This document shows positions 1 to 15,786 of a stretch of DNA of 31,830 bases, piece by piece. The notes under the pieces were generated by a model. It made no database searches and was not told where the DNA came from. It was given only the letters and a program-made list of their open reading frames with translations. The translations under genes were made by a program, and so were the position numbers. This stretch comes from a virus: positions 1-31,830 of IMG/VR virus record IMGVR_UViG_3300005664_000034; one strand, given 5' to 3'. Numbering within the stretch: the stretch's first letter is position 1; each line of letters starts with the position of its first letter.

Positions 1-3000
1 TCGAACAGAATACGTGGTACCAGAGCCTTCGGATTATCCACACCAGAGAACGTATAGGCCCGCACCATGTCCTGAGCCACCTGTGCGAACGCAAACCCCG
101 GCAATAGCGTTACACCAGCCCGCATCGTTTTAGCGATATTCTGGAACGCCGTGACGAGACTTCCTACCTCCGTGGGCATCCCGGCAAACGCCGCCACATC
201 AAGCGGGTCCATGACGTAAAATTCTGCTCTTTCTCCTTTGATGTACGTGGACACATAGTGTTTTTCCGTTCCGGGTGGGTGCATGGCATTCACCGGAGTC
301 AGTTTAGCGTATCCCAGTCGCTCCAAATCTGATAGTGATCGCCTAACCGCATTGACTTTAACCGCATCTCCAACCATCCGCGAGGACAACGCTAAGAACG
401 CATTAACAATGTCGCCAACCTGACGTTTTGTCGTGGAGCCTTTGAACGGACGATAAGCAGCCACCCCTTGCAGGCCCCGGCTCTTGCCCGTCGCCTTAGC
501 CAACACGTTATCCAGATCATCCAAACGGTCGAACGGAACGTAGGCCGTAGCCTCCTTCCAATCCTCTGCCTTATCCTCCGATATACGTCCAGCCTCAACC
601 AGATTATCAATCAAGTTAAACCGAACAGCATCCATCATTTCCAGAATCTCCTGCGCTTCCGGCGTGGCGTTATACGCCGCTTCCATGGCTAGGATTTCTG
701 AAGGAGTAAAGTCCAGTTGGACGAGGTTCTCATCCCGTAGCTTATCCGCCAGTTTCTGCTTACCAGCCGCTTCCATTGCTAGCGCTTGAACCTCGATGTC
801 CTGATTGTGTTTAAGCAGGGCCGCTTCCCGATGACCGTACATCAACGTGCTGAGCGTCTTCACGGTCTGCTCATACGTCTTACCTTCCTGCTGAGCTATG
901 GCATTAACATACTCCACCACCTTTTCACCAGACACAGGGCGACCACGAGTGATTGGGAACCGTGCCGTATCAGGGGTAGTCAATTCTGTAGCCGTGTACA
1001 TACCATCAGCGGTCTTCTTCAAACCACCAGTAGTAAGTACAGCCTCAGCGATACGCTGGAAGTCCAGAGCCTGTGCGAGCAGCAGGGCAGGATTCGTATT
1101 CCCCAGAGCGTCACGGACCTTGTACCCATACCCTTCCCACAGCTTCTTATCCAGCGAAGCCATCTTGTCGGTGAGCAGGTTGCGAACCTTCCCTATGGTA
1201 CTTCCGATAATAATGTCTTTAATGCTTTGGGAAAGCGTAGGGTCCTGCTTGATCGCTATGATGTCCGCTGACGAAGCAAGCTGCTCATTAGCTGTGGTGT
1301 TAATCGCGTAGGAATACGATTCCTTTGGTCCCAGTTTACCGAAGTGCAGGACATTACTCTTGTTTACAGCCGGGAGCGCTTCAAGCAGCCTATTTACGGC
1401 TGACCTATCCTGTGGTGGGCGGTTGGTCAGATTCAACCAGAAGTCCACAATCCTATCCCACAGAGAGCGCTTACTACCCGCATCCAAAGCCTTAAGCTCC
1501 CGCTGGAACGCTGGATTAGAGTACGCCTCAGATACGAATTCCTTTACGTTCGTAAAGCCGTATGATTTGCTACCACCACTTCTAGCCTTGTAATCCTTGT
1601 ATATTTTCTGGAATACCTTAGCAGATGACGCATTAGCGTTTATCGCGTATACCGTAGCAGCGTGGGCAAACTCATGTAGGAAAGCATACTCAGAGTCGCC
1701 CCGTTGGAAGATAACAATAGCGTTGTTGCCTTCGTCAAATACAGCCAGATACTTACCACCCCTAGAGGTATCAATTCGGACAGGTACGTGTACAGGTAGT
1801 TTCAGGTACGCTTTAGCGAGCGCTTTGTAGAACGGGCTAGATCCCGAATGACTGAGGAATTTAAGGATGGTGTTAGTATCCGCCCTAGAGTCGATAAGCT
1901 GCTCAACAGCCAAAGATACAACAGGGTCCCCTTCGGAATTCCGACTGACCGTAGGCATGACTACCGTTTTCAGTAACTCATGTCCAGCCTTAATAGCGTC
2001 TTCAGCGTGTACCTTATTCTTCAGGTCACCATTCTTGGTGAAATACTTCTTCCGCCATTCCTTGAATTCAGGTAGAGAGTTCGGGACGTTGTACTCAATC
2101 TCGTCGTCCAGCGTGGCGAGGTCAGTGATGTTGTAGGGGTACTTCGGCGCGGGTTGCGCTTCTCCCCTAGCTATCGCCTTACGCTTAGCTTTATCAGCTT
2201 GGTAGTCATCAATGTAGGCTTCGCCTATAGCCCCCTCAAACTCCGACTTTTCCTTGTCGTACAGTTTGTAGTATGCGGACTCCGCGCGTTTCGCGGCTTT
2301 ATAGAATTCCTTATTGGCTGCTTCCAATTCAGCAGCGGCTGACATCTGCTCAGCTTCGTTACCTGTAAACTCGGCTATCTGTAGACGCTCCTCAGCAGCA
2401 TCCCGGGCCGTTTCAAGAGGCTTAAGAGCGGCTTTATGTTCCGCCAGTTTCCCACGATACGCCTGCTCCTGCTCCGGGGTAATACCACTGACAAGGGGAG
2501 GTTCATACTCCGTCTTTTTCGCCGGGAGCGGTTCGCTTAGTGTAGGCTGTAGTGGCGGCGTTCCTCGTACGTCATTTCCAGCAGGTGCGCCAGTATCTCC
2601 CACTCCTGATACGACAGCTTTACTAGCTCCTCTGGTACGGGGCTTTCCATTTCCGTTTCCAGATACAGGAACGCTTGAGACACTTGTGTTACCGTCAGCC
2701 GCGACAGCAGGGGCACCATTTCCGGCGTCAGTTTCGGTGGCATCAGTTGTCTCCTCAAATCCCGGTAGCGCTAATTGTTGTCGGCGCAGATAGTTAACGA
2801 ACGGGGCCACCTTAGCTATAGTAGCTTGAGAAGTAGCTCTATTCTCCAACAGAGTTTCCAGCCCACTCAGTAGCTTATTAACGTCTGAGGTTCGGTCCAT
2901 CCGAAACAGGGTATCACCAAGTTGCTTCATGAACTTGGATTGACGTGGTACCCCAATACTGGCTAGCTTATCGTACCCTACTGTTGGTGGTGTCTCAAGC

Positions 3001-4283
3001 GTGCGATTCAGACTGGTATTAGCCGCCTCTGGGTCCACTTCACCCGGGGGCAATTCCTCAAACAGTTCCGGTTGGGCAGAGTCCGAGAATGGTAGCTGAC
3101 GCTGCCTATCATCATACCGTACGGTAGGTTCAGGGATATCCTCAGACTTATCTTCAGCCTTAGGTACATACTCCCCGAACAGGTCAGGTTGTCCAGCTTC
3201 TTCCGCCGAGAGTAGGTCAGGGTTCGTTTCTGGAACCTTACGGTTATACCCCTCAAGAGTAAGCTGCTTCAGGGCTTCTCTAACCCGAGCCAATTCCGCC
3301 TTGTCTGCTGGGGAGGGCCGCTTACCCTTCATAGCCTCCATGAGCCGTTGCTCATGTTGCTTCAGTTCACCATAGTCAGCCGGGAGCGGGCCTTGTTCAC
3401 CAGCCGGGGGAGGAGCCGTGCCAGCCTTAGCCGCCCTAGCAGTCGCTTCCTCGCGCCGAGCCTTGTCGATGGGGGTTTCGCCATCAACCACCTGCCCATG
3501 GTTCCCACGGCGACCGAGAGCCGCGTCCGTCAATCCCTGAATAAGCGCACCCACACCAGCGCCATACGCGCCAGCTTCACCAGACCCCTCAACAATAGCT
3601 TGGTCAGGTTTATAGACACCCTTAGCGATCAGGTTTTGCAGAATCTGGGCAGAGGCTTCCTGTGCGCCTTCAGCGCCGCCAGTAACAGCAGCGCGGCGAA
3701 TGTAGTTAAAGATGCCTTCTTTAACTGGGGTACTGAGGTGTTCAAGGAACTTGAACACAGGGAGAATTTCCGTAGCGCCTACGGCTGCTCCCAACGCTGT
3801 GGATAGCCCACGCTGCCCCGAGTTCGCTCCATCCTGCTCAGCCCTTACCCGAGCTTCACCGGCACCCGCAGCAGCGCCCATGCCCCCGGCAGCAACCCTA
3901 CCGACCATACCCAGCGGGCCTAGGGCGAAGAACGGGGCCGTGGAGCCTACACCTTCACCCAGCTTTCTACCTACAGATTGTTCGTACCCGGGGGATGCCG
4001 CAAATGGCTTACGGATTGTATCCGCTATATCACGGGTAGTTTCCCGTACGGATTGCTCTTGCTCTTCGGGGAGAAGAGAAGCGGCCCCAGCGACCGCTGA
4101 TTGGGTCATATTGACCGCGCCGGGGACCAACCCCTTAAACAGTTCTTTTACATTACCACCAATGGTAGTTTTGGGGGCAAACTCTGGGAACTGTGATTGG
4201 ATAAGCTGGGCGGCTTTCTCTTTAGGTACGTCGTCAGGAAACTCAACTGTGCGCCCATCTGGGAGAGTTACGCTATACGACAT
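1..4283 (-). CDS. Giant polyvalent/ejected virion protein, 3' end beyond window
   Basis: One frame is open from an ATG at 4283 to the left edge (1427 codons visible, C-terminus missing). An AGGA ribosome site precedes the ATG, 8 bases after the upstream stop. Visible parts in order: a short N-terminal domain; a Gly/Ala-rich hydrophobic stretch (about residues 45-160) that could cross a membrane; a charged low-complexity linker (about 270-620); a zincin-like HEFAH motif at residues 870-874 (YAFLHEFAHAA); helical regions; YVPFDR at about 1248; and a segment with LPGFAFAQVAQDMVRA at about 1393. The last two recall the large polyvalent-protein-associated domain LPD38. Phage polyvalent proteins of this size are typically injected with the DNA. 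Its place after three ejection-type genes, like T7 gp16 at the end of the core-protein genes, supports an internal virion protein. Peptidase activity is inferred only from the motif. Confidence 0.85.
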   Translation of the reverse strand, partial: MSYSVTLPDGRTVEFPDDVPKEKAAQLIQSQFPEFAPKTTIGGNVKELFKGLVPGAVNMTQSAVAGAASLLPEEQEQSVRETTRDIADTIRKPFAASPGYEQSVGRKLGEGVGSTAPFFALGPLGMVGRVAAGGMGAAAGAGEARVRAEQDGANSGQRGLSTALGAAVGATEILPVFKFLEHLSTPVKEGIFNYIRRAAVTGGAEGAQEASAQILQNLIAKGVYKPDQAIVEGSGEAGAYGAGVGALIQGLTDAALGRRGNHGQVVDGETPIDKARREEATARAAKAGTAPPPAGEQGPLPADYGELKQHEQRLMEAMKGKRPSPADKAELARVREALKQLTLEGYNRKVPETNPDLLSAEEAGQPDLFGEYVPKAEDKSEDIPEPTVRYDDRQRQLPFSDSAQPELFEELPPGEVDPEAANTSLNRTLETPPTVGYDKLASIGVPRQSKFMKQLGDTLFRMDRTSDVNKLLSGLETLLENRATSQATIAKVAPFVNYLRRQQLALPGFEETTDATETDAGNGAPAVAADGNTSVSSVPVSGNGNGKPRTRGASKAVVSGVGDTGAPAGNDVRGTPPLQPTLSEPLPAKKTEYEPPLVSGITPEQEQAYRGKLAEHKAALKPLETARDAAEERLQIAEFTGNEAEQMSAAAELEAANKEFYKAAKRAESAYYKLYDKEKSEFEGAIGEAYIDDYQADKAKRKAIARGEAQPAPKYPYNITDLATLDDEIEYNVPNSLPEFKEWRKKYFTKNGDLKNKVHAEDAIKAGHELLKTVVMPTVSRNSEGDPVVSLAVEQLIDSRADTNTILKFLSHSGSSPFYKALAKAYLKLPVHVPVRIDTSRGGKYLAVFDEGNNAIVIFQRGDSEYAFLHEFAHAATVYAINANASSAKVFQKIYKDYKARSGGSKSYGFTNVKEFVSEAYSNPAFQRELKALDAGSKRSLWDRIVDFWLNLTNRPPQDRSAVNRLLEALPAVNKSNVLHFGKLGPKESYSYAINTTANEQLASSADIIAIKQDPTLSQSIKDIIIGSTIGKVRNLLTDKMASLDKKLWEGYGYKVRDALGNTNPALLLAQALDFQRIAEAVLTTGGLKKTADGMYTATELTTPDTARFPITRGRPVSGEKVVEYVNAIAQQEGKTYEQTVKTLSTLMYGHREAALLKHNQDIEVQALAMEAAGKQKLADKLRDENLVQLDFTPSEILAMEAAYNATPEAQEILEMMDAVRFNLIDNLVEAGRISEDKAEDWKEATAYVPFDRLDDLDNVLAKATGKSRGLQGVAAYRPFKGSTTKRQVGDIVNAFLALSSRMVGDAVKVNAVRRSLSDLERLGYAKLTPVNAMHPPGTEKHYVSTYIKGERAEFYVMDPLDVAAFAGMPTEVGSLVTAFQNIAKTMRAGVTLLPGFAFAQVAQDMVRAYTFSGVDNPKALVPRILF

Positions 4284-4291
4284 ATACGATC

Positions 4292-5971
4292 CTATTCGAT
4301 TTTTCCAGTCGCTGGGTTATACCGCAGTGACGCGCCCGCCCCTGATTGAGCGGAGGTACCGCCAATCATACTTGGCTCTACGCCGATTGCAAGCATTTCA
4401 TCACGCACCATCTTTTGGTACATCGCCCCCGTTGGGTCTTTGGTGATACGCATCGCCAGCATAGGGTCATTCTTCAGCCTATTCTGTACATTATCAATAG
4501 CCTTATCCCGCATAGCCATCAACTTCACTTCAGCCGTAGTACCACCTACCCGAGCATCCGCCGAAATACGAGAAGATTTAATGTGCGCGTCTGCGTTGAT
4601 GTTAGCAACGTCAAGGTCCTTCTGGCGCTCAGCGGCTTTATCACCCATATCAGCTTGGTGTTTAGCCAGTACCATCTTAGCCTGAGCAATCTTCTCATTA
4701 GCCGTTTGCAGTTTGTCCACATCACCGGTACGCATCGCCAATTTCTTCTCAAGGATGCCCTGCTTAAGCTGGTCATTAGCGTCACGGATAGTGTCAATCT
4801 TATCCCGCTCAGAACGGCGAAGTTGTTCCTGTGCTCCGTAGACCTTAGCAGCCGCACCAGCGGCGCCCGCAATACCACCCTTACGAGTAGCTTCAGCCGC
4901 AGCACCTAGCATCTCCGCATTACTAAAGAACCCTGCTGGTCCCTTATTCTCACCCTCACGCTTAGCCATTCTAGCTTCACGATCAGCGGCGATCTTAGCG
5001 GCAGAGTCCAGATATTCTTTACGGAGTGCTTCAGTCTGTTCGTCAGGTTTAGCGTTCTGCCCCAAGATATTCTGAAGGTACTCCGAAGCTGAGTCCATAC
5101 CCGTTGATGGTACCGGAGCCGCCGTAGGTCCAGCCGCAGCCGGTGTAGCCTTACTAGGAAGAGCCGCAACAATTCCTGCCGGGGCCGCTGCGCGTTGTGG
5201 TGCGGCTGGTGTAGGAACAATACCCTTATTCTGCGCCATCAACTTAACCAGTTGATCCGTGATAACAGCCTTCTCTTCAGGGCCAATTCCCGGCGTACGA
5301 AGAGCGTCAGATAATGTACGAATCTGCTCTTCCAAATCCCCGCCAATACGAAAATTAGGTTCAGCGTGTCCAGCGGATTTCTCGGCTGCTGACGATGGTG
5401 ACGCGGGTGATGCGGCTCTCCTAATCTTGTCCATCATAGGGGTCATAGAACTTCTATCCCCACCATAGAACGAATCAGGTAGGTAAGGAACATTCACCCC
5501 AAACGCTCTGAGGGGTCTAGTAATTCCAGATTCAAGCGCCCCAGCGATACCCCTAGGGATAAGTGAGCCGACATCATATCCAGCCGCCAGCAGTTCCTTT
5601 ATCCTACCCATAGCGCCAGCACCCAAACGCCCAGCGCCCGACTCAATAGCCTCACGGTCAGAAGCTTCCTGCTCTCCCTCTACATAGTCACCCTTAGCGT
5701 AACCAACAATACCACCATTGGCAAACGACTGCTGTGTGGGGATAGAGTCAATCCCTTGAGCCTGCTGCATGACCTGTTGGGCGATAGGCGGCTGTTGTTG
5801 CGCCTGCTGCGCCATGGCTTGCTGACCCTGTTGGGCCTGCTGCATCTGACCTTGTTTAACGCGCCGCTGCAACTCGGAAAGGGCTGCGTAAGGCGGGATT
5901 TCTCCCTGCCCCAAAACAGCCTGTTGAAGTGCCTGCATTGGCAGGCCAGAGAGGTTACCTTGAATGCTCAT
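4292..5971 (-). CDS. Putative internal virion/ejection protein, 559 aa
   Basis: The N-terminus (about residues 35-75) is extremely glutamine-rich with repeated QQAQ units. It is followed by the motif FANGGIVG at residues 83-90 and a long Ala-, Lys- and Asp-rich helical region (about 290-500) that looks like a coiled coil. There is no signal peptide. The start ATG overlaps the stop of the upstream 400-residue gene (TAATG), indicating translational coupling. It lies between other putative ejection proteins and directly precedes the giant polyvalent gene, the place where podoviruses encode proteins carried in the capsid and released with the DNA. The ejection role is inferred from position and composition. 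No catalytic motif was recognised. Confidence 0.8.
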   Translation of the reverse strand: MSIQGNLSGLPMQALQQAVLGQGEIPPYAALSELQRRVKQGQMQQAQQGQQAMAQQAQQQPPIAQQVMQQAQGIDSIPTQQSFANGGIVGYAKGDYVEGEQEASDREAIESGAGRLGAGAMGRIKELLAAGYDVGSLIPRGIAGALESGITRPLRAFGVNVPYLPDSFYGGDRSSMTPMMDKIRRAASPASPSSAAEKSAGHAEPNFRIGGDLEEQIRTLSDALRTPGIGPEEKAVITDQLVKLMAQNKGIVPTPAAPQRAAAPAGIVAALPSKATPAAAGPTAAPVPSTGMDSASEYLQNILGQNAKPDEQTEALRKEYLDSAAKIAADREARMAKREGENKGPAGFFSNAEMLGAAAEATRKGGIAGAAGAAAKVYGAQEQLRRSERDKIDTIRDANDQLKQGILEKKLAMRTGDVDKLQTANEKIAQAKMVLAKHQADMGDKAAERQKDLDVANINADAHIKSSRISADARVGGTTAEVKLMAMRDKAIDNVQNRLKNDPMLAMRITKDPTGAMYQKMVRDEMLAIGVEPSMIGGTSAQSGAGASLRYNPATGKIE

Positions 5972-7173
5972 TACGTCCCCGCCTTCTGTGGGTTAAACAG
6001 GTTGTATAGACTCAAGGCCCCAAGCCCACCACTCAACAACGAGTTAATAGCCGAATCACCTGACTGATATTGGTTCGCTTGCAACGGGAGCCCAGACAAC
6101 AATTTCTGCATGTTCTGCGCCTGCACCTGTGGGTAGTTCATGGATTCCTGCCACTGTGCGTAGCCAAAGTCCAGAGGCTGTTGAGCCAGTGAATTCTGTG
6201 TAGCACCCGCCCCCATTTGCGCCCCGAGGTTATTCAGTTGCGCGGCATTCTGCGCGGTACCCAGTGAAGACAATCCCTGTCCAGCATTCAATGCACTTGT
6301 CCGCGAAGCGTTGATAGCCGACATAGCCGAGTCAAAAGCACTCTGTTGTCCCTTGTTCTGGATATCCCCCAATTGTGTAGAAAGATTCCTAGCCGCTTCC
6401 GCCTCTTGCAGTCCCTGACGACTACCACCGAATGCCCCAGAGCCAACAGCCTGAGCATTACGCCCTTGCTGAGCAATCTGGTCAGAACGAATAGCTTCAC
6501 GCTTATTAGCGTCCACCACGTTCTGCATGTACGGGCTCATGAACTGAGCAACCGTGTTCGGGTTACTGGCGTCGTACTGCGGGCCGTTAAGCACGTTCGT
6601 GAACGCTTGTCCAGCTTGCCCATACTGCCCCGGCATCGAGAGCCCACCGATACCTTGGAATGCCTGATTCTGTAGGTTAGACGCACCAGCGAAACGATTC
6701 CCTGTGTAGGGTTGGTATGGCGCATTAGCCGCCTGCTCACCGCGAGCCAGCATGTTGTACACATACTGGTCGAAATTCGGTGACAGCGTAGACTGTGATG
6801 GGTCCAGCGTAGAACCATTAGGCGCGATAGGCGACTGAGTTCCGTTCGTAGGGAGCGTCCCAATTCCACCGGGGGTAGGCTGCTGTGGCTGGGTACCCGG
6901 CTGAGTGCCGTAATACTGCGCGTAGGGCATCCCGTTAGGCGTGCTGGGAGTTCCCGGCGTACCTGAGGTGTTACCACCGATGGTGAACTTACTAGCTGTA
7001 GGTATTACAGCCGGTTGAACCTGTGTAGGGGCTGGTGCTGGGGCTGGTTGTCCCATGGGTTTAGGCGTCAGCGACGTAGACGTTCCCATTTGGGACAGAG
7101 GGCTAATCCCCCCTGTAGCCGTAGTGTTAGCCTTCGGCTGATAGATGCTCGAAAAGTCGTAGATGCTTGCCAT
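5971..7173 (-). CDS. Putative internal virion/DNA-injection protein, 400 aa
   Basis: The N-terminal third (about residues 30-130) is a Pro/Gly/Thr/Gln-rich, probably disordered segment. The rest is predicted helical with many Gln, Asn and Ala residues. The motif FMSPYMQNVVDANKRE at about 205-220 and the following SGAFGGSRQ are features I associate with DNA-injection proteins of uncultured podoviruses, though this is recognition from memory. The C-terminus has a Gly/Leu-rich hydrophobic patch (LLSGGLGALSLYNLF). Its stop overlaps the start of the next gene and it follows the 661-residue gene with a 3-base gap. A GGGG-containing ribosome site precedes the ATG. The role as a capsid-internal protein needed for genome delivery is inferred. 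Confidence 0.8.
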   Translation of the reverse strand: MASIYDFSSIYQPKANTTATGGISPLSQMGTSTSLTPKPMGQPAPAPAPTQVQPAVIPTASKFTIGGNTSGTPGTPSTPNGMPYAQYYGTQPGTQPQQPTPGGIGTLPTNGTQSPIAPNGSTLDPSQSTLSPNFDQYVYNMLARGEQAANAPYQPYTGNRFAGASNLQNQAFQGIGGLSMPGQYGQAGQAFTNVLNGPQYDASNPNTVAQFMSPYMQNVVDANKREAIRSDQIAQQGRNAQAVGSGAFGGSRQGLQEAEAARNLSTQLGDIQNKGQQSAFDSAMSAINASRTSALNAGQGLSSLGTAQNAAQLNNLGAQMGAGATQNSLAQQPLDFGYAQWQESMNYPQVQAQNMQKLLSGLPLQANQYQSGDSAINSLLSGGLGALSLYNLFNPQKAGT

Positions 7174-7176
7174 GAT

Positions 7177-9162
7177 TTACCCCAATGCCTGAATGTGGCG
7201 GATAGTGTTTGTGTCAGCCGCTACGTTTCTATTACCACGCCGTTCGGTCATGATTTGCTCCATGGCCTGCTTCAACTTAGCCGCGCCAGATTTCGTATCT
7301 CCATTCCCAATCTCAGACACAACACGGGCTGGGAAGATGAATTCACCGGTAGCGATTTCTGCGGGCTGCTGTCCATCAATCTGTGCTGGGATTGAATCCG
7401 ATACGCCGTCACCCGGCCCCTGAATCAGCCGACCCTGCGCCAATCCAGCAATGCCACCCATCTTAGGGCTATACGCCCCCGGAGTCTGAGCCAGCCCACC
7501 CATCGCCATACGCACCGGGCCATACTGGGAATTGCTCACCGCATACTGCCGTGCTGGGAGAGACTGATAACCGCGTGTCGTCCCACCACCAGTAGCTTTC
7601 TGGCGTCCAGCGTATTGAGCCAGCGCCCCGAGCAGAGCCGCAATCCCTTTCCCTGATGCCAACCCACCAAGCGCCGAACCACCAGCCCCCAACAGGCTTT
7701 GCAACCACGAAGGCATACCACCGCCACCGGTAGAAGTCCCCGGATTAGCTGTACCCCCACCAACGGGGTATTGTCCTGCCCCGGGCTGATCGTCGCCGGG
7801 AGTGTCCTGCCCTGTCTCATCCTTCCAATACGAATCAGAAGGAACCTCAGGACCGTCTACAGCGTTATCCGAGTCAAACCAATCGAACTGATTACCCCAG
7901 TCTTCTCGACCCCAATTAGCGAGGTCAGGAGCATCCCCAGAATTCCAATCATCAGCCGATGACGTAGTTTGGTCATCGATACCCCATGCACTAAAATCCA
8001 TATTACCTCCTTGAGGTTCTTGCGGATTAGCAAAGAACCCTTCTTCCAATTCAGGATCACCACCCGGGATGAGGCTATTACTGAGGTTGACCTTACCGCC
8101 AATACCTTGTAACCCCTGACCACCAGACATCATACCCGCACCACCGGCCATCAGAGCCCGCTGAATGTCCCCAGTAGTCGCCAGCGTAGTTCCCGCTCTA
8201 GTCAGTCCAGATGCGATGTAGTCCGGTATGCCAGCGCTAAGAAGCTGCTGATTCGTGTACCCAGCCGCCGCATTAGTAGCCCCACCAATACCACCAGAGA
8301 CAGCCCCTTGCAGGATGTCCCCACCTTGCAGGCCCGAGCGGATACCACCAGTAGCAGCGCCCTGAACAACCTTATCCAACCCGGCGATACCTGTAGATGG
8401 GAGCCCACCCATCAACTTACTGCCTACCTGCCCTGAGAGGTACCCAATACCAGCGTTCTTAGCGATGTCAAGGAAGTTCCCACCCTCCACCGCTGAAACC
8501 AACCCGCCTACCAGAGGAGCAGCAATCGCGCCGACCCCGGGTATAAACGATGCGGCTAATGGGGCGAGTTTACCTAGTACGCCTAGATTGGTAGTTGATG
8601 TCTCCCACTTCGGGACAAGCACGGGCTGACCATCGCGCCCTTTGACAAACTCGAAATTGACGTGCCCTTTACCAGCAGCAGACATATTCAATCGGTTCTT
8701 CTCAGGGTCCCGCATCCAGATAGGCTTACCTGTTGCGTTATGGATGATTTCGCCCTTGTCGTTGTAGGACAAGTCGGACATGGAATGAATGTTCTGGCGA
8801 GCGATATTTTCAGCCGCAGCGTACCTATCCCAATCACCGTAGTTATTAACCCAGTTTACCCCCGAGCTACCTAACTGGTCATATATGTTCCCAATAACAG
8901 AGTATTTTGGGTCCCGTAATTTCGGGTCAGATATACCTACTGTATTGTAGAACTGTTCAGCCTGACCATATTTCTTTGCTTTAGATAACCCTTTAGGATC
9001 AGTAGCAGCGAACGCATCAAACCCCGATAGCGGGGCGGCTGGTGCAGCAGGTTGGGGCGTAGCTACCGCTGGGTTATTAGCGAAGCCAAAAGACTCGGCA
9101 ATAGACCCACCTTGCGCTGGTTGCCCGAGTAGCGCTTGAAGAGTAGGATTTGCGATAGCCAT
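7177..9162 (-). CDS. Putative internal virion protein with membrane-active segments, 661 aa
   Basis: This large protein has no recognised catalytic domain. Two hydrophobic Gly/Ala/Ile-rich stretches (about residues 195-225 and 500-535) could insert in membranes or pack amphipathically. Between them lies an acidic, tryptophan-rich low-complexity part (about 385-470, with AWGIDD, DWNSGD, NWGRED and DWGNQFDW). The C-terminus (about 575-645) is compact, with RLIQGPGDGVSDSIPAQIDG followed by a charged helix. It is the first of four consecutive genes that look like genome-ejection proteins. The ribosome site is weak, and an 88-base gap separates it from the lectin-like gene. I looked in that gap for a terminator or promoter and found no convincing one. 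The function is inferred from context. Confidence 0.8.
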   Translation of the reverse strand: MAIANPTLQALLGQPAQGGSIAESFGFANNPAVATPQPAAPAAPLSGFDAFAATDPKGLSKAKKYGQAEQFYNTVGISDPKLRDPKYSVIGNIYDQLGSSGVNWVNNYGDWDRYAAAENIARQNIHSMSDLSYNDKGEIIHNATGKPIWMRDPEKNRLNMSAAGKGHVNFEFVKGRDGQPVLVPKWETSTTNLGVLGKLAPLAASFIPGVGAIAAPLVGGLVSAVEGGNFLDIAKNAGIGYLSGQVGSKLMGGLPSTGIAGLDKVVQGAATGGIRSGLQGGDILQGAVSGGIGGATNAAAGYTNQQLLSAGIPDYIASGLTRAGTTLATTGDIQRALMAGGAGMMSGGQGLQGIGGKVNLSNSLIPGGDPELEEGFFANPQEPQGGNMDFSAWGIDDQTTSSADDWNSGDAPDLANWGREDWGNQFDWFDSDNAVDGPEVPSDSYWKDETGQDTPGDDQPGAGQYPVGGGTANPGTSTGGGGMPSWLQSLLGAGGSALGGLASGKGIAALLGALAQYAGRQKATGGGTTRGYQSLPARQYAVSNSQYGPVRMAMGGLAQTPGAYSPKMGGIAGLAQGRLIQGPGDGVSDSIPAQIDGQQPAEIATGEFIFPARVVSEIGNGDTKSGAAKLKQAMEQIMTERRGNRNVAADTNTIRHIQALG

Positions 9163-9250: not shown

Positions 9251-10117
9251 TTACGGGGTAAACGGTCCAGTGGGGAGGGTGTAGCTGCTGCCCGTGTACT
9301 TGACCCCAGCCGATATGAGAATGTTGTCCAGATAGAACGGCGTGCCGATGTTGTACAAGGCTCCACTGTATCCAAATTTAACATCAGTTAACGCCCATGG
9401 GGTGGATGAGAACGAGGCGGCTGTAATCGTATCTACCAACGTACCAGCTTGGTATAAGTTAAGAGCGCCCGAGTCTTTATCCAAAACCACAGCAAACTTA
9501 ACCCATGCTGATGTTCCAGTATTATCCGACTCTAATGCTGTAGACAGACTACCAGCCCCATTCTGCACGTTCACAATCGGGTAGGGGTCAAACGGTGGGC
9601 TGGTGTCATACAGCACATCCAGACCTATCTGGAAACCATCGGCTGATCCTGAATTGATGTAGATCGCTGGTCCGCCCCCGTATACCCCACCACCATAATC
9701 CACACGTCGTACACTGAACTCAACTGTCCAGTTTTTAGATGTAGTGGCTGGAGCTGCTGAGGATACGTTAAACTCTGTTGTCTCTAGGGCGATAGAGTAC
9801 GTACCGTATTCCGCGTAGGTGCTGTCTCTGTATACATTCCCCGCCAAAAGCCCAGTAACCGTAGTCGCTGAAATTTCCTCTTCCGCCGTGGTGGTAGTCG
9901 CTGTCTCAAACCCGAACAGCATTTCTTTCGTAACGGACCCTGCCGCGATAGACACGGTACCCGCTGCTGTAGTCACAGACACACCAGTTACGGGGAGACT
10001 AATAGTCTTACCAAAGGCCCCCACAGCCGCGATTGACTGATTACCACTTAACACAATCCCTGACGGGGGAACCACAATCCCCATTAGCAGGTGGCGGTGG
10101 CCCATCAATCCCGTCAT
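9251..10117 (-). CDS. LamG/concanavalin-like tail-surface protein, 288 aa
   Basis: The ATG at 10117 overlaps the upstream stop (ATGA) and is preferred over a GTG two codons earlier. Residues about 35-60 contain LPVTGVSVTTAAGTVS, which matches the unit of the repeat protein at 15796-16863. Residues about 85-275 read as a beta-sandwich lectin-like domain: WTVEFSVRR, AIYINSG, FQIGLDV, WVKFAVVLD, LNLYQAGTLVDT and FYLDNILIS are typical alternating strands of LamG/laminin-G or concanavalin-like folds. Such domains on phage tails bind glycans on the host surface. It forms a coupled pair with the 151-residue fibre-tip-like gene upstream. Glycan binding is inferred and no specific ligand can be given. 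Confidence 0.8.
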   Translation of the reverse strand: MTGLMGHRHLLMGIVVPPSGIVLSGNQSIAAVGAFGKTISLPVTGVSVTTAAGTVSIAAGSVTKEMLFGFETATTTTAEEEISATTVTGLLAGNVYRDSTYAEYGTYSIALETTEFNVSSAAPATTSKNWTVEFSVRRVDYGGGVYGGGPAIYINSGSADGFQIGLDVLYDTSPPFDPYPIVNVQNGAGSLSTALESDNTGTSAWVKFAVVLDKDSGALNLYQAGTLVDTITAASFSSTPWALTDVKFGYSGALYNIGTPFYLDNILISAGVKYTGSSYTLPTGPFTP

Positions 10118-10569
10118 GACCACGCCTTAGCTAGAGTCACCTTCCAAGTAGTACCTTGGTCTAGGCTAGTCAAACCCATCTCATCTATAGCCCCGTTAGC
10201 CGTAGAGACATTACTGATAGTACCACCTTCCCACTTGAACGATGCGGGCCACGCCACTGTATACGGTCCAGCCCCTTGCACAAACTCTATCCACTTCGTC
10301 ATCCCCACATTGGCTGTGGCTACGTTAATGAATACGATGCTAGTGACGTTGGCTGTAAGTACCAGCCTGAAGTAATCCCCACGCGCACAGTCCACGGTCA
10401 CCACACCAGCTACAATAGTCAGTGTAGTAACCGTATTCCCTACAGTCGCCGCGTACGTGACATCATTGTTCAACCGAATCAGGTAGTTGTTAATGTCCCT
10501 GAATATCTGGTCGAACGCGCCCCGCGCATACTCCTCTGGTGGGTTGGGTATGGTAGGTGGACGCGCCAT
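10114..10569 (-). CDS. Short tail-fibre protein with a shared C-terminal domain, 151 aa
   Basis: The first 35 residues (RPPTIPNPPEEYARGAFDQ and a short helix) resemble a docking segment. Residues 58-151 match the last 97 residues of the fibre at 14542-15786: both have VDC near the start, then WPxxFKWxGGT, an ST-containing turn, and end with TTW/TSW, a short strand and AKA(W/F) or TKAF. The domain is therefore an interchangeable beta-structured fibre tip or trimerisation unit. Its start overlaps the stop of the nozzle-like gene (TAATG), and its stop overlaps the lectin-like gene (ATGA), so the three are likely coupled. The assignment as a virion surface protein is an inference from domain sharing and location. 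Confidence 0.8.
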   Translation of the reverse strand: MARPPTIPNPPEEYARGAFDQIFRDINNYLIRLNNDVTYAATVGNTVTTLTIVAGVVTVDCARGDYFRLVLTANVTSIVFINVATANVGMTKWIEFVQGAGPYTVAWPASFKWEGGTISNVSTANGAIDEMGLTSLDQGTTWKVTLAKAWS

Positions 10570-13592: not shown

Positions 13593-14545
13593 GCTACCGT
13601 ACCATAAGCCCGCGACGAAGATGCCGCACCACCAGTCCACGTAATAGCGAACCCGTTAAGGTCAACAGCCTTACCACCGGCTGCGCCAGCATTGTTCGTT
13701 TCCACAGCGCTGGAATTCACAACTGCATTACTACCAACGCTGCTAGAGGCATTACCCGCTCCACCCGTGGAACTTGAGCTAGTACCCGCTGTATTGACTT
13801 CCTGTCCGTTACCACCAGCAGCACCCCAGCCACCGCCACCGCCACCAGCGAAGCCGAAGGCCGCTCCAGAGCCATAGCCACCGCTACCGCCGCCACCGCC
13901 ACCGCCACCACCGCCACCGGGAGCAGCCGTAAGCGAATTTCCACCAATGCCTCCGCTACCAGCCGAGCCACCAATTTGACGGCCACCACCGCCACCACCT
14001 GACGTGCTAGCTGTACCTGTAGAGCCTGCTGCGCCCACCGCCCCACCAGCGCCACCCGTCTGTGGGGAGGATGTAGAACTACCACCAGCACCACCACCAG
14101 CGCCGCCACCACCAGAACCGTTAAGCGCTTTACCCCCGCCACCACCGCCACCAGCGATATACCCAGAGGTATTAGTTACAGTAGTGTTGAACCCCAGTTT
14201 GAGGGCAGGTCCCCCGGCTGTAGGAGCTACTAGACTACCACCTGCTGAGACAGTAGCTCCATCCCCGCCCTTACCCATGATATAGCCATTATTGACTAGG
14301 GTAATCGTGTCGCCAGAAGTTCCACCTTGCAGCGTCAGGCCCGGTAGTGTGGTACCGTTACTCCACAGATAGATACCAGAATTGATCGTAACAGTTACGT
14401 CAGTATTACCGGCTGAATATCCACTGAGTGTGGTGATATCGAGGACAGGCTCTTGCGTATCAATCGAGTATGTCTGTGAAGCGGACACACGCCCGCCCCC
14501 GCCCCCGGAACTACCTTCAACAGAGCAGCGAGTAGCGAAACTCAT
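13589..14545 (-). CDS. Glycine-rich putative distal tail adhesin, 318 aa
   Basis: The ATG at 14545 overlaps the fibre stop (ATGA). An earlier in-frame start exists but lies well inside the fibre gene. Residues about 20-130 are strand-rich ([41 protein letters not shown]). From about 130 to 270 the protein is mostly Gly with Ala and Ser, including runs of 5 to 11 glycines separated by short loops. It ends in a non-repetitive beta segment ([13 protein letters not shown]). Glycine-run sandwiches forming polyglycine-II helices are known in gp38 adhesins of T-even-like phages such as S16, which are encoded just downstream of the long fibre, as here. Receptor binding is therefore a reasonable inference. 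Cysteine is nearly absent. Confidence 0.8.
13880..13925. repeat. Triplet-repeat tract coding for a long glycine run
   Basis: On the plus strand the tract reads as imperfect cca/ccg/gcc triplets (GGN glycine codons on the coding strand). It encodes the longest glycine run of the adhesin gene. Tracts like this can gain or lose codons in frame by slippage, so length may vary between relatives. Confidence 0.7.
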
Positions 14546-15786
14546 GTAAACGCCTTTGTAATCGTTGCGTACCAAGATGTCGTAGCTGTCCTGTATGTAG
14601 CTACCACCAAATCTACAGAGTTAGGGGCTGTAGACAACACGCCAGCCGTACCACCCGGCCACTTGAATCCAGTAGGCCAATTAGACCCGACCGTTCTTGA
14701 GCCTGTAGCGTCTTGGGTAATGAATAGGTTCACTGTCTGTCCATTCCGTGGATTACTGAATACCATAGCCCCAGAGAGTGAATTGGTGAAGGTAACAGTG
14801 AACACATTAGATTGTGAGCAGTCTACCGTAGTCCCCCCAGCAACAAACGTAACCGCTACTGGTGGGGTAGACGCCGCTGTGAAAACACCTTCGGCGGGGG
14901 TAGTGGCTCCAATTGTACCATTCAGCACTGCTGAGGTTGCCGTGAGCCCTGTAATCGTAGGCGACGTAGCAAAGACCGCTGATCCTGTACCTGTCTCATC
15001 CGTGAGCGCTGCCCGCAGATTTGCGCTGGATGGCGTAGCCAGAAACGTAGCCACGTTGGTGCCCAGCCCTGCGACACCCGTACTCACAGGAAGACCCGTG
15101 CAATTGGTTAGCGTCCCAGAAGTTGGCGTTCCGAGGATCGGTGTTACCAGAGTCGGTGAAGTAGCGAAGACAGCCGAGCCTGAGCCCGTTTCGTCAGTGA
15201 GCGCAGTTGCAAGATTAGCGCTTGAAGGCGTAGTGAGAAATGTTCCAATTCCGGCTCCCATACCAGTAATCCCCGTAGAGAAGGGGAGTCCAGTACAATT
15301 AGTAAGAGTTCCTGATGCTGGCGTACCAAGCACAGGCGTCGTGAATGTAGGGCTGGTGAGCGTAGGGCTTTCGAGATTAGTAAATGCGCTAACCACGTTT
15401 GTACCATTACAGTACAGCGCCATCGACTTTCCATTGGGGATAGTGATACCACTACCAGCCGTAGGCTTAACCGTAATTGATTGTCCACCAGTGGTGGAGT
15501 TCGTCACGAAATACAACTTCGATGCCGTTGGGCAGATCACCTGTCTAGTCGCCGTAAGAGCTACACTACTGGTAACCGCAAGAAATAGGCACCGCGCCTC
15601 ATCTGTAGCTCCACTAACCGTGGTCAGCGTATAGTTAGCGTCCGTCATGGACACAGCCGCCGTACCAGCGATAGCCGAGTCAATAAGCGTTGTAACGCCA
15701 GTGTTTACAGTAGACCCCCAAGTACCGCTCAGTTCCCCCGTAGTTGGGAGAGTCAGTCTGAGTAGCGACGTATATGTAGATGGCAT
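14542..15786 (-). CDS. Tail fibre with LGTP-type repeats, 414 aa
   Basis: The N-terminus ([20 protein letters not shown], residues 11-30) is a common start of podoviral fibre proteins that dock to the tail. Residues 153-217 and 218-281 are two near-copies of a 65-residue unit: LGTP(A/T)[30 protein letters not shown] and SAVFATSPT. This unit is widespread in phage tail fibres. Residues 318-414 form a separate C-terminal domain also found in the protein at 10114-10569. A GAGGT ribosome site precedes the ATG. The fibre lies between the 13-repeat protein and the glycine-rich adhesin, with which it overlaps by four bases. It is expected to be a trimeric fibre involved in host attachment; trimerisation is inferred. 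Confidence 0.88.
14943..15330 (-). repeat. Two tandem 65-codon repeats in the tail fibre gene
   Basis: The two copies correspond to fibre residues 153-217 and 218-281. They share the peptides [18 protein letters not shown] and SAVFATSPT, with scattered changes and one boundary difference. The DNA has drifted more than the protein, so the duplication is not recent. Confidence 0.85.

What the first reader, a model, noticed from the sequence alone, without database searches (positions are those of the whole stretch)
1..4283. Giant ejected polyvalent protein with a zincin-like HEFAH motif, running out of the window
A single frame of 1427 codons without a stop contains YAFLHEFAHAA (residues 866-876) in the middle and an LPD38-like region (YVPFDR, then LPGFAFAQVAQDMVRA) towards the visible end. 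The layout (hydrophobic N-terminus, linker, peptidase-like domain, further domains) is that of polyvalent phage proteins that travel with the DNA into the host. A metal-dependent peptidase delivered at infection could cut a host defence or envelope protein. The HExxH motif is seen; the activity and target are inferred.
Basis: partly seen in the sequence, partly recalled or inferred. Interest (0 to 1): 0.68.

Follow-up and report, generated by a model that had tools for sequence, protein, structure and literature searches.

The report
Phage ejection protein carrying a metallopeptidase
The window ends inside the gene for a very large protein that this aquatic, probably short-tailed phage likely packs in its head and injects with its DNA; it carries a genuine zinc-peptidase-type domain that the injected proteins of many phages share, including three in already solved structures, one of which was published as a cell-wall-cutting enzyme.

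Summary
The 1427-codon frame is on the MINUS strand (4283..3) and runs off a 31,830-bp linear viral record. HEFAH (870-874) is no accident: residues ~776-979 are a gluzincin-type domain. H870, E871, H874 and E915 are kept by every relative that could be scored; E915 is Glu in 105/105 sequences collected by a pattern that did not require it, and in 31/31 others. An AlphaFold2 model (pLDDT 79) has the zincin layout and matches the PhiM1 ejectosome protein (VIA Z 8.5), anthrax lethal factor (6.7) and N4 virion RNA polymerase C1 (6.5). The gene closes an ejection cassette whose last slot, in relatives, holds 760-3600-aa proteins with or without the zincin. It is a new member of a described kind (polyvalent MPTase proteins, Iyer 2017). 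Beyond that: no Pfam model covers the domain, and its solved PhiM1 copy was published as 'endolysin/exotransglycosidase-like'. Activity and substrate are untested; two homologues stored or purified apparently uncut argue against constitutive self-cleavage, so action after ejection is favoured.

The parts
3..4283 (-). giant ejection/polyvalent protein, 1427 codons visible, 3' end beyond the record
   Evidence: homologous complete proteins are mostly 2057-2444 aa
4170..4283 (-). residues 1-38: short N-terminal module (PDG..V.FP) resembling the N-termini of other giants of this phage group
   Evidence: by eye from the N-termini listed; residues 1-255 match L247 1-256 at 6e-5
3405..4151 (-). residues 45-293: Gly/Ala-rich N-terminal part
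   Evidence: matches L113 at 4.5e-39 and L110 at 8e-29; phrog_10691 1.3e-11; part matches phrog_2206 (N4-type vRNAP family) at 4e-4
1347..1958 (-). residues 776-979: zincin-type metallopeptidase domain
1662..1676 (-). HEFAH, residues 870-874: two predicted zinc-ligand histidines and the general-base Glu
   Evidence: invariant in A1 and A2
1539..1541 (-). E915: predicted third zinc ligand
   Evidence: invariant in A1 and A2; Glu in 105/105 and 31/31 aligned sequences
4292..5971 (-). 559-aa second cassette protein
   Evidence: position only; no database match
5971..7173 (-). 400-aa DNA ejection protein
   Evidence: phrog_4287 2.8e-9; homologues HTVC023P gp81, DSL-LC04 42250-43134, CRP-901 gp33
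7177..9162 (-). 661-aa protein upstream of the cassette
   Evidence: C-terminal match to DSL-LC04 759-aa 'tail tape measure protein' at 5e-6

Best explanation
The gene encodes the largest ejection protein (the protein in the position of T7 gp16 or N4 vRNAP) of an aquatic podovirus-like phage. It is a mosaic 'large polyvalent' polypeptide: a short N-terminal module, a Gly/Ala-rich part, a long linker-like stretch, a zincin-type metallopeptidase domain (H870, E871, H874, E915), and a C-terminal part that should continue into LPD38 beyond the record. It is probably packed in the head uncut and threaded out with its partner proteins ahead of the DNA. After ejection the refolded zincin would work as a zinc endopeptidase in the envelope or cytoplasm, most likely cutting a host protein in trans (an accessory effector carried on the ejection protein), otherwise cutting the ejection proteins in a regulated way. 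Shown here by computation: the domain, its conserved ligand pattern, its fold by model, the cassette position and the mosaic architecture. Inferred: zinc binding, catalysis, packaging and ejection of this particular protein, and the substrate.
For: Ligand pattern invariant in 11 and 39 aligned sequences and in 136 scored sequences. Model with zincin layout; VIA matches to PhiM1 ejectosome TEP, lethal factor, N4 vRNAP C1, Pro-Pro endopeptidases and minimal gluzincins. Profile matches in PDB sequences to three internal/ejection proteins, N4 vRNAP and lethal factor. The phi14:2 homologue is recorded as found in virions by MS/MS and as RNA-polymerase-associated. Cassette position behind a DNA ejection protein. 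The domain is present or absent in the same slot of related phages, as expected of an accessory function. N4 vRNAP is packaged unprocessed (PMC5512222); recombinant N4 vRNAP was modelled over 1007-3500 with no cleavage reported (PMC12633501); PhiM1 TEP is modelled over 1103 of 1263 residues in the mature virion.
Against: No activity, metal or substrate evidence for any member in the sources read. Foldseek against the PDB gave no significant match, and VIA Z of 8.5 and below can reflect a common arrangement. P0001 has no match to the T7 gp16 family and no detectable similarity to the shorter last-cassette proteins of HTVC023P, DSL-LC04 or CRP-901, so the equivalence rests on position. Conservation of the domain in Autographiviridae ejection proteins also fits a role in ejection itself rather than an accessory one.
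Confidence: 0.5

Rival explanations
1. Self-processing: the zincin cuts its own polypeptide or its partner ejection proteins, before or after ejection, freeing domains to reach different compartments (the main reading of Iyer et al. 2017).
For: Iyer et al. infer it from P1 DdrB, which is processed before packaging (PMC5512222). P0001 has a long linker-like stretch, residues 261-730, that could be cut.
Against: N4 vRNAP is packaged unprocessed and recombinant N4 vRNAP was resolved over RNAP plus CTD; PhiM1 TEP is modelled on both sides of the domain in the virion, though loops within it are disordered. Autographiviridae TEPs of about 1,250 aa have no other catalytic domain that was named to release.
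Confidence: 0.3
2. The site is not a working protease: the HExxH helix serves folding, packing in the head or another metal-dependent reaction.
For: The N4 authors note that HExxH also occurs in radical-SAM-associated proteins (PMC12633501); an HExxH oxygenase domain is in the VIA list at Z 3.8. [quoted passage not shown]
Against: The general-base Glu is kept along with all three ligands in all scored sequences (one of the two sets was selected for HExxH). The better-scoring named matches are ejection proteins or peptidases. Complete giants of the same phage group do without the domain.
Confidence: 0.12
3. Peptidoglycan hydrolase: the domain is the 'endolysin/exotransglycosidase-like' domain proposed for PhiM1 TEP and opens the cell wall for the ejection channel.
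For: Published label for PhiM1 TEP 268-528 (PMC11440229); phrog_342 is named for an endolysin domain.
Against: The profile aligns TEP 315-514 to the zincin motifs (E 1e-20), and the fold match is to zincins. C171 and ZX6 match phrog_342 only after positions 219 and 183, beyond the T7 gp16 transglycosylase (residues 1-156, PMC8954989). A metallopeptidase acting on peptidoglycan peptides is not excluded.
Confidence: 0.08

Closest known systems
Zincin-like MPTase domains of phage polyvalent proteins (Iyer et al. 2017, PMC5512222), including coliphage N4 virion RNA polymerase (C1, residues 2124-2375, PMC12633501)
   Same: HExxH plus C-terminal Glu, fold layout, place inside a giant ejected protein; profile E 1.3e-7 in my test, VIA Z 6.5
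   Different: No N4-type RNA polymerase domain was detected in the visible part; different flanking domains; very low sequence identity
PhiM1 tetrameric ejection protein gp48 (8vb2) and the related internal virion proteins 9sfn_G and 23sg_S
   Same: Closest solved structures, by profile (E 1e-20 to 1e-28) and, for 8vb2, by fold (Z 8.5); third and largest protein of an ejection cassette
   Different: 1,239-1,337 aa without LPD domains named; published there as endolysin/exotransglycosidase-like (PMC11440229)
Cellulophaga phage phi14:2 g065 (RNA-polymerase-associated virion protein) and crAss-like relatives
   Same: Nearest sequence relative of the domain (40% over 85 aa, E 6e-9), in a virion protein next to the RNA polymerase subunit
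   Different: The zincin lies near the N-terminus (residue 245 of 1421); no similarity detected outside the domain
Planktothrix phage Pag-Yong1 large polyvalent protein (2772 aa)
   Same: Phage related by terminase and structural genes; same zincin (E 1.8e-19)
   Different: No similarity to P0001 detected outside the domain
Anthrax lethal factor (Pfam ATLF, family M34)
   Same: Weak sequence match (Pfam E 0.0037 for the domain; PDB profile E 2.6e-4) and VIA Z 6.7
   Different: Below the Pfam cut-off (17.4 of 27.4 bits); a toxin domain of an unrelated delivery system; related only as a zincin

Membership tests
Gluzincin-type zincin metallopeptidase | HExxH motif with both His and Glu conserved | tested here: met
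Gluzincin-type zincin metallopeptidase | third ligand Glu on a downstream helix | tested here: met
   E915 in helix 154-163 of the model; Glu in 136/136 scored
Gluzincin-type zincin metallopeptidase | zincin fold | tested here: met
   model layout and VIA matches to several zincins; Foldseek alone not significant
Gluzincin-type zincin metallopeptidase | zinc binding and proteolysis | not testable with these tools
   -
Phage polyvalent (MPTase) proteins, Iyer 2017 | large multidomain polypeptide with a zincin-like MPTase domain | tested here: met
Phage polyvalent (MPTase) proteins, Iyer 2017 | LPD38 domain | tested here: inconclusive
   absent from the visible part; expected beyond the record end from six relatives
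Phage polyvalent (MPTase) proteins, Iyer 2017 | delivery into the host | not testable with these tools
   inferred from homologues and cassette position
Ejection protein in the gp16 position of podoviruses | largest, last gene of an ejection cassette | tested here: met
Ejection protein in the gp16 position of podoviruses | sequence match to the T7 gp16 family (phrog_342) | tested here: not met
   no phrog_342 match for P0001, unlike C171 and ZX6; so it is called gp16-position, not a gp16 homologue
Pfam ATLF (lethal-factor family) | Pfam gathering score 27.4 bits | tested here: not met
   14.5 bits whole protein, 17.4 bits domain

The most novel reading that the evidence does not exclude
One family of injected zinc peptidase, which no Pfam model covers and which is partly misnamed as an endolysin, is a widespread add-on of the largest ejection protein across unrelated podovirus-like groups (phiKMV-like, N4-like, crAss-like and these aquatic phages), and acts in trans on a host protein in the first minutes of infection.
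Probability: 0.35. Interest if true: 0.78.

Novelty: new member of a known kind. Interest (0 to 1): 0.5.

Why it matters
Ejection proteins are among the least understood virion parts. If an intact peptidase rides on the largest one in phiKMV-like, N4-like, crAss-like and these aquatic phages, a single active-site mutation in a tractable phage (N4 on E. coli K-12) can ask what a phage cuts as it enters a cell. It also suggests that a published domain label (PhiM1 TEP 268-528, endolysin/exotransglycosidase-like) should be re-examined, with a clear prediction: metal at two His and one Glu.

Tried and rejected
(1) Close relatives of the whole protein or of its zincin domain in IMG/VR by peptide patterns: none. 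(2) Alignment A1 was too divergent for such a scan, so a neighbouring structural gene was used to reach the phage group. (3) Bacterial genome contigs with the terminase: no relative found with these patterns. (4) LPD38 in the window: no match. (5) NCBIfam: nothing for P0001. (6) A hidden zincin in T7 gp16: the profile does not match; its HERLH stands alone. (7) Foldseek against the PDB: nothing significant, lethal factor on top. (8) CF418P1 has HEVVGH (HExxxH) in its giant protein; it was left out of the alignments. (9) Papers on 9sfn and 23sg were not found; Drobysheva 2021 and Yutin 2018 are not held.
Full report
What is there. The stretch 1-4283 holds one open frame of 1427 codons on the minus strand, starting with ATG at 4283 and running off the record at base 3. 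The record is a 31,830-base linear viral contig, so the rest of the gene cannot be had from it. The motif YAFLHEFAHAA is at residues 866-876 as reported. HExxH alone would not impress: 1.25% of shuffles of this protein have one. None of 2000 shuffles had the extended pattern HExxHxxT...E[FM].

The domain is real. tblastn of residues 780-960 found relatives in Cellulophaga phage phi14:2 (40% identity, E 6e-9), in crAss-like phages and, more weakly, in internal proteins of Autographiviridae and in Rhizobium and Flavobacterium phages. An alignment of 11 of them has exactly H870, E871, H874, T877 and E915 invariant; a second alignment of 39 sequences has the same five. That pattern fixed the histidines but not E915; E915 is Glu in 105 of 105 of those sequences that align there, and in 31 of 31 of the set found by other routes. 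Caveat: the column comes from a profile alignment across a variable insert (42-102 residues from the first His to the Glu), which could favour a Glu; the hydrophobic residue after it (F, M, V, L or I) supports the placement.

Structure. AlphaFold2 on residues 760-1000 with the 39-sequence alignment gave pLDDT 79.1 and pTM 0.70: strands at 76-78, 88-91 and 96-99, an active-site helix at 105-124 (motif at 111-115), and a helix at 154-163 with E156 = E915. This is the layout that Iyer et al. give for zincin-like MPTases (PMC5512222). Ligand distances were not measured, as the coordinates were not at hand. Foldseek against the PDB gave no significant match, with lethal factor on top at E 0.04; against viral models 25 matches pass E 0.001, among them phi14:2, phage internal proteins and polyvalent proteins. 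VIA-align put the PhiM1 ejectosome protein first (Z 8.5, rmsd 3.8, 140 residues), then lethal factor (6.7), N4 vRNAP 2124-2363 (6.5), Pro-Pro endopeptidase (5.7) and minimal gluzincins (4.8). By the tool's own note a Z near or under 8 can be a common arrangement, so the sequence evidence carries the weight: the profile finds 9sfn_G (internal virion protein, 1337 aa, E 1e-28), 23sg_S (gp10, 4e-26), PhiM1 TEP (1e-20), N4 vRNAP (3e-5) and lethal factor (2.6e-4) among PDB sequences. In a separate test N4 vRNAP scored E 1.3e-7 against 0.06 for the best of 200 shuffles.

A likely mislabel. The PhiM1 paper names TEP residues 268-528 an endolysin/exotransglycosidase-like domain, from BLASTP and DALI (PMC11440229). 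The profile match covers TEP 315-514 and aligns its HEAAH and its YGLSDTHEF to the zincin motifs. The PHROG family phrog_342 is named for an endolysin domain, but the C171 and ZX6 proteins match it only from profile positions 219 and 183 on, whereas the transglycosylase of T7 gp16 is in residues 1-156 (PMC8954989). PhiM1 coordinates and maps were not examined; this is a prediction to check.

Context and architecture. On one strand the window holds terminase, portal, head protein, tail and lysis genes, then a 661-aa protein, a 400-aa DNA ejection protein (phrog_4287), a 559-aa protein and the giant. The 400-aa protein has homologues in HTVC023P (gp81), DSL-LC04 and CRP-901 (gp33), phages related to this one by terminase. 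In those the last cassette protein is 868, 1068 and 759 aa and has no zincin; in Pag-Yong1 the corresponding gene is a 2772-aa 'large polyvalent protein' with the same zincin (E 1.8e-19). Among 34 IMG/VR records reached through the 611-aa structural gene, 11 carry the domain; many of the others are fragments, so this is not a frequency. Seven complete giant proteins with LPD38 lack this domain: L246 has ART-PolyVal and a different HExxH, L250 and L251 have a different HExSHP motif, and four have no HExxH. So the domain comes and goes in one slot.

P0001 is a mosaic. Residues 45-293 match the N-terminal parts of L113 (E 4.5e-39) and L110 (8e-29), both with LPD39; residues 1194-1426 match LPD38-type giants: L252 (5e-16), CF418P1 (5e-13), L246 and L117. 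In six relatives LPD38 begins 172-204 residues after that segment.

How it most likely works. The homologues place the domain on proteins that are packed in the head and leave it early in infection. N4 vRNAP is packaged unprocessed (PMC5512222), and recombinant N4 vRNAP was modelled over residues 1007-3500 apart from a linker and two loops, with no cleavage reported (PMC12633501). PhiM1 TEP is modelled over 1103 of its 1263 residues in the mature virion, with disordered loops within the domain. Constitutive self-cleavage is thus unlikely for these homologues; Iyer et al. do infer it for P1 DdrB, which carries another MPTase. What remains is a host target after ejection, regulated self-processing, or a non-proteolytic site. 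A host target is favoured slightly, because the domain is accessory within this phage group and because the ~1,250-aa Autographiviridae proteins have no other named catalytic domain to release. This is elimination, not proof.

Novelty. The class was described by Iyer et al. in 2017, N4 vRNAP included, and the N4 C1 motif is noted in the 2025 preprint. Not found in the literature held: the explicit link to PhiM1 and the other solved ejection proteins, the invariance of the third ligand across this family, and the lack of a Pfam model (of 39 members, one has a weak ATLF match). The window protein is a new, divergent member of a known kind.

Noticed in passing
4170-4283 (minus strand); N-termini of L112, L116, L247, L248, L249, L251: A short N-terminal module (like MSYSVTLPDGRTVEFPDDVPKEKAAQLIQSQFP) seems to recur at the very start of giant ejection proteins of this group, with and without the zincin; it could be a packaging or ejection tag. 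Seen by eye, no statistics.
   Followed up: no
L009:3174-6968, L006:8002-11700 and PDB 8vb2: Internal virion proteins annotated as having an endolysin domain (phrog_342, PhiM1 TEP) carry the zincin where the label was applied or lack the T7-type N-terminal part; the annotation looks inherited or mistaken.
   Followed up: partly
L250 residue 668 and L251 residue 698; L246 residue 615: Giants in the same slot carry other HExxH motifs (TLFHEMSHPVT, TLFHELSHPLQ, TMRHESLHALK) that the zincin profile does not recognise; possibly other MPTase clades.
   Followed up: no
L110:3509-10048 (minus strand): The C-terminal part of this related giant matches DarB-like antirestriction (phrog_10089, 4.6e-51) and the NCBIfam 'PLxRFG domain' tail (2.4e-93).
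   Followed up: no
10114-10569 and 14542-15786: Two genes of the window end in the same tail-fibre type module (phrog_9017), one at 1.1e-13 and one at 4.4e-4.
   Followed up: no
L011:4720-11565 and L014:5167-10578: In crAss-like phages cr272_1 and cr4_1 the annotated zincin gene has 18 in-frame stops under table 11, as expected if a stop codon is reassigned; no other code was tried.
   Followed up: no
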